Notes under the pieces: model-generated
Database searches by the model: none
Seen by the model: the letters and a program-made list of their open reading frames with translations, nothing else
What the model was told of the DNA's origin: nothing
Made by a program: the position numbers and the translations under genes
Shown: positions 56,130 to 58,817 of the stretch, one piece after another
Layout: each line of letters opens with the position of its first letter
Position numbering within the stretch: position 1 is the stretch's first letter
NCBI RefSeq assembly: GCF_001886955.1
Contig: NZ_CP016804.1
Location: 1,984,001-2,048,000 of the forward strand
Source: Halodesulfurarchaeum formicicum
Lineage (GTDB): Archaea; Halobacteriota; Halobacteria; Halobacteriales; Halobacteriaceae
Length of the DNA: 64,000 nucleotides
Direction of reading: 5' to 3'

Positions 56130-56184
56130 GAAAATGCATTACTACACTCGCACCCGTAGGGCCTCTGTGGTGAAAACAGAATGA
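56128..56184 (+). CDS. possible 18-residue leader ORF before the DsrE-like gene
   Basis: ATG at 56128, inside the palindrome, starts an 18-codon frame with stop TGA at 56182-56184, overlapping the DsrE-like ATG (56181) as ATGA. It has two in-frame ATGs and a basic, Arg- and Tyr-rich translation unlike normal proteins here. It may be a coupled leader or chance. Confidence 0.25.
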   Translation: MKMHYYTRTRRASVVKTE

Positions 56185-56579
56185 CCGGCTATGCAATCGT
56201 CCTCGCCTCCGAGGAGTTCGAGCGGGTACAGGCAGTGAGTATGATCGGAAGCGTCGCTGCCTCCTCGGACGTCCCCGTCGAGGTGTTCGTGACGATGAAC
56301 GGACTCAACGCCTTCGAGAAGGACACGGTCGAGAACCTGGACTTCGAAGGCGGTCGGGTCGCCGAAGCGATGCTGGCGGCCGAGGACCAGCAGAGCCCAC
56401 TTTTCACCGAGCAGCTGGAGAAGGCAAAAGCCATCGGCCCGCTCTCGGTGTACGCCTGTGAGATGGCCATGGACGTGCTCGGCAACGACCTCGACGATTA
56501 CGTCGACGTCTTTGACGACACGCTTGGCGTCTCCGGGTTCCTGAATCGCGCACAAGACAAACAGATCATCTTCGTCTAA
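56181..56579 (+). CDS. DsrE/DsrF-like sulfur-relay protein
   Basis: A 132-residue DsrE-family protein. The start YAIVLASEEFERVQAVSMIGSVAASSDVPVEVFVTMNGLNAF and the Cys-containing YACEMAMDVLG (Cys93) match DsrE-like proteins, which carry sulfur as a persulfide on that cysteine. It is the first gene of a four-gene unit with TusA, a flavoprotein and a DUF1641 protein, with TusA starting 10 bp downstream. It may accept or pass sulfur from TusA. Confidence 0.88.
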   Translation: MTGYAIVLASEEFERVQAVSMIGSVAASSDVPVEVFVTMNGLNAFEKDTVENLDFEGGRVAEAMLAAEDQQSPLFTEQLEKAKAIGPLSVYACEMAMDVLGNDLDDYVDVFDDTLGVSGFLNRAQDKQIIFV

Positions 56580-56589
56580 CAACACAACA

Positions 56590-56829
56590 ATGAGCGAATC
56601 CATCGAAGCTGACGAAACGGTAGACGCACGCGGCTCGGCCTGCCCGGGCCCCCTCATGGACCTGATCGGCAAGATCAAAGACGTCGAGGAAGGCACCGTC
56701 GTGGCCCTTCTGACCGGCGACGAGGGCTCGAAGAACGACGTTCCCGAATGGGTCGAAGAGGCGAACCACGAACTCCTCGACATCGACGATAACGGGGAGT
56801 ACTACACGATCTACGTGAAAAAGACCTGA
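56590..56829 (+). CDS. tusA: sulfurtransferase TusA
   Basis: A 79-residue TusA-family protein. The motif ACPGPLMDL (Cys18-Pro-x-Pro) is the sulfur-carrying site, with the conserved helix and later strands (TVVALLTGDEGSKNDVPEWVEEANHELLDI). TusA shuttles persulfide sulfur between donor and acceptor proteins. It lies between the DsrE-like gene and the flavoprotein, 10 bp and 1 bp away. This suggests they work as one sulfur-relay chain. Confidence 0.93.
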   Translation: MSESIEADETVDARGSACPGPLMDLIGKIKDVEEGTVVALLTGDEGSKNDVPEWVEEANHELLDIDDNGEYYTIYVKKT

Positions 56830-56830
56830 T

Positions 56831-57970
56831 ATGACAGCGCGAATCGTCATCGTCGGGGGCGGGAGCGGTGGCACGATCACCGCGAACCGCCTGGCCGAGG
56901 AGCTCGAACCGCAGATCGAGGCCGGCGAGGTCGAGATCACGATCGTCAGTGACAACCCGAACCACATCTACAAGCCGCTGTATCTGTACGTGCCGTTCGG
57001 GGAGGCGACCCTCGAAGACGCCAGCCGACCGCTGGTCGACCTGGTCGACCACCGGGTGAACCTGGTCTTCGAGCACGTCACCGACATCGACACGGACAGC
57101 AAGTCCATCGCGACGGCCGCCGGGTCCGAACTCGAGTATGACTACCTCGTGATGGCGACCGGCGCGATCCCCCAGCCCGAGGAGACACCCGGACTCGGGG
57201 ACGACGAGCCGGGCCATCACTTCTACGGCCCGGAGGCCGCCGAGGACCTCCGGACGGCCCTGGCGAACTTCGACGAGGGGCATCTCGTCCTCTCGGTCAT
57301 CGGCACGCCACACGTCTGTCCGGCGGCGCCGGTGGAGTTCCCCATGATCGTCGACCAGTGGTTCCGGGAACGCGGCGTCCGCGAGGACATCGACATCACG
57401 TACACCTACCCCATCCAGCGCCTCCACGGGGTTCGCCCCACGGCGGAGTGGATGGTCCCGCGATTCGAGGAGCGTGACATCGACTCGAAGACGTTCTTCA
57501 ACGTCGACAGCGTCGAGGACGGCACGATCGAGACCCTCGAGGGCAAGGAACTGGACTTCGACCTCATGGTCGGGGTCCCCGAGTTCACCGCGTCCTCGCT
57601 CGTGCAGGACGCCGGCCTCGGCGAGGAGTGGATGGAAGTCGACCGTCACACGCTCGAATCCGACCACGCCGAAGACGTCTATGGCATCGGCGACGTGACC
57701 AACCTCCCGACCAGCAAGGCCGGCAGCGTGGCCCACTACGCGTCCGGCACACTGGTTTCCCGGATCGCGAGTGAGGTCCGCGGACAGGTCCCAACCGCCA
57801 CCTTCGACGGCAAGACGATCTGTTTCATCGAGGCCGGCACGGAGGAGGGCACCTTTATCGAGTTCGCGTACGACCGCGAACCCGTGGTGCGGGACGAGAA
57901 CCGCTTCCTCCACTGGTCGAAACTGGGATACAACGAGGCCTACTGGCTCACCGCCAGAGGGGTGATGTAA
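56831..57970 (+). CDS. FAD-dependent sulfide:quinone oxidoreductase-like flavoprotein
   Basis: A 379-residue NAD/FAD-dependent disulfide oxidoreductase. The dinucleotide motif is IVIVGGGSGGTITANRLAEEL, and the second is DVYGIGDVTNLPTSKAGSVAHYASGTLVSRI. The two redox cysteines are C163 (TPHVCPAAPVEF) and C331 (KTICFIEAG). The CPAAP element is typical of SQR-like and related flavoproteins. Classical SQRs have a third Cys that is not found here, so the substrate (sulfide, persulfide or polysulfide) is inferred. The C-terminal region is long and ends with WLTARGVM. It lies 1 bp from tusA and is followed at once by a DUF1641 gene. Confidence 0.87.
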   Translation: MTARIVIVGGGSGGTITANRLAEELEPQIEAGEVEITIVSDNPNHIYKPLYLYVPFGEATLEDASRPLVDLVDHRVNLVFEHVTDIDTDSKSIATAAGSELEYDYLVMATGAIPQPEETPGLGDDEPGHHFYGPEAAEDLRTALANFDEGHLVLSVIGTPHVCPAAPVEFPMIVDQWFRERGVREDIDITYTYPIQRLHGVRPTAEWMVPRFEERDIDSKTFFNVDSVEDGTIETLEGKELDFDLMVGVPEFTASSLVQDAGLGEEWMEVDRHTLESDHAEDVYGIGDVTNLPTSKAGSVAHYASGTLVSRIASEVRGQVPTATFDGKTICFIEAGTEEGTFIEFAYDREPVVRDENRFLHWSKLGYNEAYWLTARGVM

Positions 57971-58393
57971 ATGGGAGATGACATGGACGAACTCGAAGCC
58001 GAGTCCGAAGCGATTCAGGAGGCGGCCGACGCGATGGTCGAACTCCAGCAGGACGGAACTCTCGATGACCTCACCGAGGCGGCCACGGCCATCTCGCTTC
58101 TGGCCGACGCCCTCGACGACGAGATGGTCGTCGAGGTCGCCGGGCTGGCGAACGACCTGGGCCTGGTTGCCGGAAGCGCGAGTCAGACGAACACGATTCG
58201 CACGCTCCAGGCCATGATGGACGCGATGGACGAGGCCGACACCTTCGAGGATCCCGAGAAGGTCGGCATGATGGGCGCAGTGCGGAAAATGCGTGACGAG
58301 GACGTCCAGCGCGGGCTGGGCTTCCTGATGGCTTTCCTGGGTGCGCTCGGTCGACAGATCGACCGTCGTGCCGAGGCCTACGACCAGTCCTAG
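57971..58393 (+). CDS. DUF1641 family protein
   Basis: A 140-residue acidic helical protein with DUF1641 features: repeated helices (LDDLTEAATAISLLADALDDEMVVEVAGLANDLGLVAG) and DEDVQRGLGFLMAFLGALGRQI near the end. DUF1641 proteins are often coded next to SQR-like flavoproteins or formate dehydrogenases, and are thought to be partner or docking subunits. It begins right after the flavoprotein stop, so it completes the four-gene unit. The next gene is sufU, read the other way. Confidence 0.88.
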   Translation: MGDDMDELEAESEAIQEAADAMVELQQDGTLDDLTEAATAISLLADALDDEMVVEVAGLANDLGLVAGSASQTNTIRTLQAMMDAMDEADTFEDPEKVGMMGAVRKMRDEDVQRGLGFLMAFLGALGRQIDRRAEAYDQS

Positions 58394-58397
58394 ACCC

Positions 58398-58817
58398 TTA
58401 CTCCGAGATTTCGGTCGTTTCCGGGTCGCGCTCGCCGCGATAGATCTCGATACCGTCCTGGACGACTTTCTCCGCGAGCACTGCACACTTGATCCGCATG
58501 GGGCTGATGTCCCCGCCGAGCATCTCGGTCATGTCCTCTCGATCCATCGCCTCGACTTCAGCAAGTGTCATCCCCGGCAGTCGCTCCCCGAGCATGCTCG
58601 CCGCGGCCTGGCTGATGGCACAGCCCTCGCCGTGGAAGGTCGCGGCCTCGATGGTCTCCCCGTCATCAGCGAGTTCGATGTCGAACTCGATCTCGTCCCC
58701 ACAGGAGGGGTTGTACCCCCGGTGGCTGAAGGTCGGGGAGTCGAGTTCGCCGTAGTTGCGGGGGTTCTTGTAGTGATCCAGGATCTGCTGGCGGTACATG
58801 TCCGATCCCATACTCAT
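58398..58817 (-). CDS. sufU: iron-sulfur cluster assembly scaffold SufU
   Basis: A 139-residue IscU/SufU-type scaffold. The three cluster or zinc ligands are C39 (NPSCGDEIEFD), C66 (GEGCAISQAAASM) and C111 (RIKCAVLA), with the CGD aspartate present. The start MSMGSDMYRQQILDHYKNPRN has alternative ATGs at 58817 and 58811. The gap after GGDIS before PMRIKC is in the SufU style. SufU accepts sulfur from SufS, and the sufS gene follows it 52 bp upstream on the same strand, so the two form one unit. Confidence 0.94.
   Translation of the reverse strand: MSMGSDMYRQQILDHYKNPRNYGELDSPTFSHRGYNPSCGDEIEFDIELADDGETIEAATFHGEGCAISQAAASMLGERLPGMTLAEVEAMDREDMTEMLGGDISPMRIKCAVLAEKVVQDGIEIYRGERDPETTEISE

What the first reader, a model, noticed from the sequence alone, without database searches (positions are those of the whole stretch)
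56181..58393. Four-gene persulfide relay: DsrE-like, TusA, SQR-like flavoprotein and DUF1641 in one unit
The genes are 10, 1 and 0 bp apart. A Cys93 DsrE, a CPxP TusA and a two-cysteine flavoprotein (C163, C331) make a plausible chain that passes sulfur from a protein carrier to FAD and then to an acceptor. The flavoprotein lacks the third SQR cysteine, so it may act on protein persulfide and not free sulfide. DUF1641 would be the partner subunit. SufS and SufU, which make persulfide from cysteine, are encoded directly opposite.
Basis: partly seen in the sequence, partly recalled or inferred. Interest (0 to 1): 0.55.

Follow-up and report, generated by a model that had tools for sequence, protein, structure and literature searches.

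The report
Sulfide oxidase with quinone-coupling partner
Four linked genes of a salt-loving, probably sulfur-breathing archaeon seem to make an enzyme that strips electrons from sulfide, a partner subunit that brings it a membrane quinone, and two small proteins that carry the sulfur away; the same pairing recurs in other archaea and in bacteria and could be tested directly.

Summary
In detail: DsrE-like, TusA, flavoprotein and DUF1641 genes lie 10, 1 and 0 nt apart, with the cysteines named; SufU and SufS lie opposite. The flavoprotein is a sulfide:quinone oxidoreductase (SQR), most like type III. Two cysteines are canonical there, and human SQOR has the same two, so a missing third cysteine does not point to a protein-persulfide substrate. 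The stronger finding is DUF1641. It follows the SQR in 119 of 119 related loci (at least 7 counted twice), in haloarchaea, Bacillota and one Campylobacterales. In 98 genomes of the window's order, 40 of 49 DUF1641 places lie by an SQR and 9 between two large oxidoreductase-like genes. DUF1641 matches solved quinone-coupling subunits: ForE1, YjlC (partner of NDH-2) and HucM. Best reading: sulfide reduces FAD, FAD reduces menaquinone with DUF1641's help, and the sulfur leaves on TusA and DsrE. The relay runs out of the SQR, not into it. TusA/DsrE/SQR clusters are already in print; a constant DUF1641 partner was not in the papers I could search, but one key paper was not readable. New variant of a known kind.

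The parts
56181..56579 (+). DsrE-like protein (132 aa), Pfam DrsE_2; candidate sulfane-sulfur carrier with C93
   Evidence: 46.6 bits; C93 in 33 of 33 sequences; nearest solved chain 2qs7, uncharacterised
56590..56829 (+). TusA-family sulfur carrier (79 aa), C18 in CPGP; the only PF01206 match in this genome
   Evidence: 75.1 bits; C18 in 99 of 100; one PF01206 match in G000
56831..57970 (+). SQR-family flavoprotein (379 aa), most like type III; C163 and C331 are its only cysteines
57971..58393 (+). DUF1641 protein (140 aa), predicted quinone/membrane-coupling subunit (ForE/YjlC/HucM family)
   Evidence: PDB profile matches 8rqz, 9snk, 9pxk, 7uus; within 1.5 kb of 40 of 40 strong SQR places
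58398..58817 (-). SufU-like scaffold, convergent neighbour; not shown to belong to the unit
   Evidence: SufU 101.5 bits, cut-off 92.5; SufU convergent in 9 of 80 contig loci
58870..60117 (-). SufS-family cysteine desulfurase, convergent neighbour; not shown to belong to the unit
   Evidence: 555.4 bits, cut-off 475.1

Best explanation
The unit encodes a sulfide:quinone oxidoreductase with its own quinone-side subunit and its own sulfur acceptors. Sulfide attacks the C163-C331 di/trisulfide next to FAD; the electrons pass to FAD and on to (methyl)menaquinone. The DUF1641 protein docks this membrane-peripheral flavoenzyme to the membrane and helps present the quinone, as ForE does for formate dehydrogenase, HucM for Huc hydrogenase and, by its PDB name, the YjlD (NDH-2) partner. 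The sulfane sulfur left on the enzyme is handed to TusA (C18) and DsrE (C93), which deliver it to later use; candidates are Fe-S or thio-cofactor synthesis, or the rhodanese-dioxygenase-like protein encoded elsewhere in the genome. Shown here: families, residues, synteny, and the relation of DUF1641 to solved quinone-coupling subunits. Inferred: SQR-DUF1641 contact, the direction of sulfur flow, the acceptor roles of TusA and DsrE, and the purpose in a sulfur-respiring anaerobe.
For: SQR identity: solved SQRs are the top hits by sequence (human SQOR 132 bits, E 1.6e-37) and fill the first 15 rows by fold (Z 38.1 to 36.3). NF049943 'type III SQR, selenoprotein subtype' is the best NCBIfam match, 325 bits, next best 57. 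C163 and C331 align with the two cysteines of human SQOR and are conserved in 119 and 120 of 120. DUF1641: on the same strand within 900 bp downstream of the SQR in 39 of 39 relative loci and 80 of 80 genome-contig loci. In 98 genomes of the order, 40 of 40 strong SQR places have DUF1641 within 1.5 kb. The other 9 of 49 DUF1641 places each lie directly after a 755-774-aa CxxCxxxC protein and before a second one of 628-695 aa; three of these 18 proteins, from two of the nine loci, were scanned and are molybdopterin oxidoreductases. The DUF1641 profile matches ForE1 (E 1.4e-5), YjlC (2.8e-5), 'NDH-2 membrane coupling protein' (4.3e-5) and HucM (0.0022). Without ForE1, ForC1 loses formate:menadione activity and nearly all bound MK-7 (PMC8808070, passages); HucM scaffolds Huc and is thought to conduct menaquinone (PMC10017518, passages). 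Sulfur carriers: TusA within 400 bp upstream in 99 of 119, DsrE within 1 kb upstream in 32 of 119. In Methylacidiphilum fumariolicum SolV an operon of type III SQR, TusA and DsrE2 is up about 1.7-fold in sulfide-adapted cells, which oxidise H2S to S0 (PMC10205796, passages). Menaquinone synthesis genes are reported in H. formicicum HTSR1 (PMC5437934, passages).
Against: No experiment on this unit. The AlphaFold2 read-through model of SQR-DUF1641 gave no confident placement of DUF1641 (pLDDT mostly under 50, pTM 0.68) and DUF1641 alone folded poorly (pTM 0.39). In one search six pentatricopeptide-type repeat chains score better than ForE1 (E down to 3.5e-10), though with no single stretch that passes, which I read as repeat noise. 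Type III assignment is not clean: the NF049943 score is below its cut-off of 525, two type II-like controls score 252 and 258 with it, and the join with the one above-cut-off type III control is weak (93/72), with long branches and unlike letter make-up flagged. From recall, the Caldivirga type III SQR reduced quinones when expressed alone, so DUF1641 may not be essential (paper not held). PF07849 also rings in Sulfolobus acidocaldarius (control), a species said to lack SQR (PMC8551704, passage); its neighbours there were not examined. The host's genus respires sulfur and makes sulfide, so an SQR could drive a futile cycle. 20 of 119 loci lack an adjacent TusA and 87 an adjacent DsrE, so these are not obligatory partners.
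Confidence: 0.72

Rival explanations
1. One reading: the flavoprotein oxidises protein persulfide (DsrE or TusA bound) rather than free sulfide, passing electrons to an acceptor through DUF1641.
For: TusA upstream in 99 of 119 loci shows a link to protein-bound sulfur; the enzyme has not been assayed.
Against: The argument rests on the missing third cysteine, which human SQOR also lacks at the aligned place and which is not part of the canonical type III pair (PMC13047784). A type III SQR with the same neighbours is linked to H2S oxidation (PMC10205796). 20 of 119 loci have no adjacent TusA.
Confidence: 0.08
2. The unit runs backwards in this sulfur-respiring anaerobe: menaquinol reduces FAD, which reduces TusA/DsrE-bound sulfane sulfur to sulfide in the cytoplasm.
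For: H. formicicum respires S0 with formate (PMC5437934), and the genus has the compact four-gene form (L034, L036).
Against: Against the usual potentials (menaquinone about -75 mV, sulfur/sulfide about -270 mV; general knowledge). Polysulfide reductases are the induced sulfur-respiration enzymes in HTSR1. The same SQR-DUF1641 pair lies near a rhodanese-metallo-beta-lactamase (persulfide-dioxygenase-like) gene in 29 of 80 contig loci (domains from one member).
Confidence: 0.08
3. SQR-DUF1641 is a two-gene enzyme; TusA and DsrE are only co-transcribed housekeeping sulfur carriers (tRNA thiolation, molybdenum cofactor, Fe-S) that do not touch the SQR.
For: This TusA is the only PF01206 match in the genome. 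The second SQR-DUF1641 pair in the same genome has neither TusA nor DsrE beside it (L033). 20 of 119 loci lack TusA.
Against: TusA sits just upstream in 99 of 119 loci across haloarchaea, Bacillota and a Campylobacterales, also where another TusA gene is nearby (e.g. L103-L106); a DsrE4 group defined by its place beside SQR is published (PMC4175335, section 21).
Confidence: 0.22

Closest known systems
Type III sulfide:quinone oxidoreductase (SqrC)
   Same: FAD flavoprotein of the SQR family with two cysteines and no third; best curated match is a type III model
   Different: Below the cut-off of the only type III model met, a selenoprotein subtype; followed by DUF1641 in all loci examined, which none of the SQR passages I read mentions
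Human SQOR (type II SQR, by recall)
   Same: Closest solved sequence, both cysteines aligned; acts on free sulfide
   Different: 132 bits only, against 392 bits for a Bacillus type II-like control; the sulfur acceptor here is probably a protein
DUF1641-type quinone-coupling subunits: ForE (formate dehydrogenase), YjlC (with YjlD, NDH-2), HucM (Huc hydrogenase)
   Same: DUF1641 protein encoded with a quinone-reducing catalytic subunit; profile match to the solved subunits
   Different: The catalytic partner here is an SQR
Methylacidiphilum type III SQR-TusA-DsrE2 operon and Metallosphaera TusA-SQR-DsrE4 cluster
   Same: The same three sulfur gene families side by side (PMC10205796; PMC4175335)
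   Different: No DUF1641 mentioned in the passages read; in Metallosphaera the dsrE gene lies downstream of the SQR, here upstream

Membership tests
SQR, type III | SQR-family FAD two-dinucleotide-binding fold | tested here: met
   Pyr_redox_2 59.1 bits; solved SQRs first by sequence and by fold, Z up to 38.1
SQR, type III | Two catalytic cysteines, no third | tested here: met
   C163 and C331 only; 119 and 120 of 120 conserved; type III canonical pair is two (PMC13047784)
SQR, type III | Curated type III model or phylogenetic grouping with type III | tested here: inconclusive
   NF049943 325 bits, cut-off 525; type II-like controls 252 and 258, an above-cut-off member 567; grouping with that member 93/72
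SQR, type III | Sulfide-dependent quinone reduction | not testable with these tools
   needs an enzyme assay
DUF1641 quinone-coupling subunit (ForE/YjlC/HucM) | PF07849 over its cut-off | tested here: met
   57.1 bits, cut-off 21
DUF1641 quinone-coupling subunit (ForE/YjlC/HucM) | Sequence relation to solved quinone-coupling subunits | tested here: met
   8rqz 1.4e-5, 9snk 2.8e-5, 9pxk 4.3e-5, 7uus 0.0022, each with one passing stretch except as listed; higher-scoring pentatricopeptide chains have no passing stretch and are judged repeat noise
DUF1641 quinone-coupling subunit (ForE/YjlC/HucM) | Encoded with a quinone-reducing catalytic subunit | tested here: met
   40 of 49 places beside SQR, 9 of 49 between two large CxxCxxxC proteins (3 of 18 scanned, all molybdopterin oxidoreductases); quinone reduction by these partners is inferred
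DUF1641 quinone-coupling subunit (ForE/YjlC/HucM) | Complex with the catalytic subunit | tested here: inconclusive
   read-through AlphaFold2 model, DUF1641 part mostly under pLDDT 50
TusA | TusA family with CPxP cysteine | tested here: met
   PF01206 75.1 bits; C18 99 of 100
TusA | NCBIfam equivalog 'sulfurtransferase TusA' (PRK00299) | tested here: not met
   43.8 bits, cut-off 78: TusA family, not shown to be an ortholog of that model's TusA
DsrE | DsrE-like family with active-site cysteine | tested here: met
   PF13686 46.6 bits; C93 33 of 33
DsrE4 subgroup | Groups with Mcup_1724 | not tested
   reference sequence not at hand; only the gene-neighbour criterion is similar

The most novel reading that the evidence does not exclude
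A large branch of SQRs in archaea and bacteria is a two-subunit enzyme: the flavoprotein reduces a quinone delivered by a DUF1641 scaffold, and its sulfur leaves straight onto TusA and DsrE, so that sulfide becomes protein-bound persulfide with no free polysulfide. DUF1641 would then be a general adaptor that plugs formate dehydrogenases, hydrogenases, NDH-2 and SQRs into the quinone pool.
Probability: 0.35. Interest if true: 0.62.

Novelty: new variant of a known kind. Interest (0 to 1): 0.45.

Why it matters
[quoted passage not shown] A constant partner subunit gives a simple test of how they reach the quinone and predicts that assays of the flavoprotein alone may understate its activity. 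It gives a plausible role to a domain still called DUF1641 in many archaea and bacteria, and suggests where the sulfur from sulfide goes in cells that may avoid free polysulfide.

Tried and rejected
Third-cysteine argument: rejected after aligning with solved SQRs and reading the type III passages.

NF049943 as a clean type III test: not decisive, since two Bacillaceae type II-like controls also score 252 and 258. One of them (L162) matches human SQOR at 392 bits; the other (L164) was not tested that way but pairs with it in the tree (100/100). That tree used 37 of the 120 SQR rows plus 5 controls; the program flagged long branches, joins of long branches and unlike letter make-up in the five controls. 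The window clade (32 rows) holds together at 100/99 but joins the type III control only at 93/72. The five haloarchaeal SQRs at 31-34% identity (L066-L070) group with the type II-like controls (100/98) yet also have DUF1641 downstream, so DUF1641 is not a mark of type III alone.

A first neighbour count missed DUF1641 in 30 loci because it used stop-to-stop segment ends; one search replaced it with domain positions.

DUF1641 near other SQRs as control: my profile found none near two Bacillaceae type II-like SQRs (L162, L164) or L163; a weak hit (E 0.0011) lies beside the selenoprotein-type L161. Of seven bacterial genomes searched with PF07849, four have a match beside the SQR and three (G099, G101, G104) have none at all; my profile, built from 34 haloarchaeal-locus members, finds a downstream match in those three as well (L147, L151, L160). 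These three assignments therefore rest on that profile and on the pattern seen for L147 and L160 (L147 also aligned). Two further PF07849 places in these genomes (G100:C65, G102:C57) are not beside the four-gene unit and were not examined.

Structure of the pair: the read-through model and DUF1641 alone are too poor to use; no fold match for DUF1641 is claimed or denied. The fold comparison speaks for the SQR part only.

A search around L160 for more Campylobacterota gave only 3 genomes, one with matches. At least 7 of the 119 loci are the same place in both sets (equal contig lengths 4887, 10373, 320959, 742482, 5579, 528269, 917372).

Literature: searches for DUF1641, ForE/HucM/YjlC, quinone channeling and SQR/TusA/DsrE or the genus showed no paper that names DUF1641 as an SQR subunit. 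Of the nine papers holding 'DUF1641' I looked at passages of five; four were not opened. PMC3149612 lists a DUF1641 gene and an FAD disulphide oxidoreductase with consecutive numbers in Ignicoccus without linking them in the passage shown. PMC9684190 lists a DUF1641 gene next in number to a probable anaerobic dehydrogenase in Haloquadratum. The most relevant paper, Broc et al. 2025, was seen only as a reference in PMC13397495, is not held, and may already mention SQR partners.
Full report
WHAT IS THERE. Four genes on the + strand encode a DsrE-like protein (56181-56579), a TusA-family protein (56590-56829), a flavoprotein (56831-57970) and a DUF1641 protein (57971-58393), with gaps of 10, 1 and 0 nt. 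Pfam places each above its cut-off. RadA, PspAB and an M48 peptidase lie upstream; SufU and SufS lie downstream on the other strand. The window is part of a single-contig genome of 2,085,946 bases. The genus is Halodesulfurarchaeum by inference: the same-genus genome G001 has contigs of 4887 and 10373 bases, the lengths of two contigs titled Halodesulfurarchaeum sp..

THE FLAVOPROTEIN. Its closest solved relatives are SQRs: human SQOR 132 bits, Aquifex SQR 73 bits, flavocytochrome c sulfide dehydrogenase 61 bits. A predicted model, confident over most of the SQR part, aligns best with SQRs, which fill the first 15 rows (Z 38.1 to 36.3), ahead of NDH-2 at Z about 33. The best NCBIfam model is 'type III SQR, selenoprotein subtype' at 325 bits against 57 for the next, below that model's cut-off of 525. 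As a check, a Campylobacterales protein passes the cut-off (567), while two Bacillaceae type II-like proteins score 252 and 258; the one tested matches human SQOR at 392 bits. A tree of 42 rows holds the window clade together (32 rows, 100/99), apart from the type II-like rows, and joins it weakly (93/72) with the type III control, with long branches flagged. I call it most like type III, not proven.

THE CYSTEINES. C163 and C331 are its only cysteines; in 120 aligned SQRs they are conserved 119 and 120 times. They align with two cysteines of human SQOR. Where the Aquifex protein has a further cysteine (its third catalytic one, by recall), the window and human proteins both have tyrosine. A 2026 study names two canonical catalytic cysteines for type III SQRs (PMC13047784, passages). 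The missing third cysteine is therefore ordinary and gives no ground for a protein-persulfide substrate.

THE PARTNER. In 98 genomes of the window's order the SQR search separates 40 strong places (93.8 bits and up) from the rest (54.7 and down), and DUF1641 has 49 places in 44 genomes. All 40 SQR places have DUF1641 within 1.5 kb; one of them is a broken SQR remnant in G058. The other 9 DUF1641 places all lie between two large CxxCxxxC proteins; I scanned three of those 18 proteins, from L072 and L074, and all are molybdopterin oxidoreductases. In a scan of species genomes, the best 80 of 373 relatives all have DUF1641 on the same strand within 900 bp downstream. Fifteen of the 80 are bacterial (Bacillota such as Mesobacillus, Bacillus and Thermoactinomyces, and one Campylobacterales), and 14 of these 15 have all four genes in the window's order. 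With the 39 relative loci the count is 119 of 119 for DUF1641, 99 for TusA and 32 for DsrE; at least 7 loci are counted in both sets.

WHAT DUF1641 DOES ELSEWHERE. A profile of eight DUF1641 proteins matches solved chains named ForE1/YjgD, YjlC, 'NDH-2 membrane coupling protein' and the Huc hydrogenase membrane subunit; some repeat proteins score higher without a passing stretch. ForE1 is needed for menadione reduction by, and menaquinone binding to, the formate dehydrogenase ForC1 (PMC8808070, passages). HucM forms the scaffold and hydrophobic stalk through which menaquinone is thought to reach Huc (PMC10017518, passages). A review describes ForE as mediating electron transfer to the quinone pool and cites Broc et al. 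2025 on a quinone-channeling scaffold (PMC13397495, passages). NDH-2 belongs to the same flavoprotein superfamily as SQR (PMC9666304, passages), so the YjlC-YjlD pair is the nearest analogue. I infer that the window's DUF1641 couples the SQR to the quinone pool. My structure predictions neither support nor oppose this.

THE SULFUR CARRIERS. DsrE C93 is conserved in 33 of 33 and TusA C18 in 99 of 100. TusA just precedes the SQR in 99 of 119 loci. In Metallosphaera cuprina a DsrE4 group is defined by its place downstream of SQR, with a TusA gene beside it, and DsrE3A passes thiosulfate to TusA and binds it (PMC4175335, abstract, section headings and section 21). In Methylacidiphilum fumariolicum an operon of type III SQR, TusA and DsrE2 is up about 1.7-fold in sulfide-adapted cells (PMC10205796, passages). 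In 29 of 80 contig loci a rhodanese-metallo-beta-lactamase gene lies in the same stretch, as a rule with YeeE-type transporter genes and another TusA-DsrE2 pair; its domains were read from one member. The window genome has such a rhodanese fusion with YeeE-type genes elsewhere, and a DsrE2 gene elsewhere. It is simplest that TusA and DsrE receive sulfur from the SQR. This TusA is the only one found in the genome, so it probably serves other pathways too.

IN THE CELL. H. formicicum HTSR1 respires S0, thiosulfate or DMSO with formate, induces polysulfide reductases on sulfur and has menaquinone genes; 'SQR', 'TusA' and 'DsrE' do not occur in that paper's main text as held (PMC5437934, passages). 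Why a sulfur-respiring anaerobe would keep two SQR-DUF1641 pairs is open. Sulfide control, electron input when better acceptors are present, or supply of persulfide for biosynthesis all fit. Running in reverse as a sulfur reductase fits the potentials worst.

NOVELTY. The TusA/DsrE/SQR association is in print. A constant DUF1641 partner of these SQRs did not appear in the papers I could search, but four of the nine DUF1641 papers were not opened and the most relevant paper could not be read. I rate it a new variant of a known kind: moderately surprising and directly testable.

Noticed in passing
G000:C1:1654333-1655870 (L033:6301-7871, outside the window): A second SQR-DUF1641 pair in the same genome (64% identity to the window SQR) without TusA or DsrE; a gene of the same cluster as a DUF5807 protein of the congener (scanned in L035) lies beside it.
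   Followed up: partly
L165 (G000:C1:338000-350000): A rhodanese-metallo-beta-lactamase (persulfide-dioxygenase-like) gene followed by two YeeE-type genes in what is probably an anaerobe's genome.
   Followed up: partly
L072-L080: Nine haloarchaeal DUF1641 genes each sit between two large CxxCxxxC genes, like forE beside a formate dehydrogenase but with a second enzyme downstream.
   Followed up: partly
L071:6769-7429 (G058): A broken SQR remnant beside a DUF1641 match and an otherwise preserved sulfur gene island.
   Followed up: no
L099:6001-9319 (Halorubrum kocurii): Two SQR-DUF1641 pairs in tandem.
   Followed up: no
L161:146-2024 (Campylobacterales): An SQR above the type III selenoprotein cut-off, with a weak DUF1641-profile hit (E 0.0011) directly downstream; a possible diverged partner.
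   Followed up: no
G099, G101, G104; L147, L151, L160: Pfam PF07849 misses the DUF1641-like proteins downstream of SQR in two Bacillaceae and a Campylobacterales, so the family may be wider than its model.
   Followed up: partly
L066-L070: Haloarchaeal SQRs that group with type II-like SQRs also have a DUF1641 protein downstream.
   Followed up: partly
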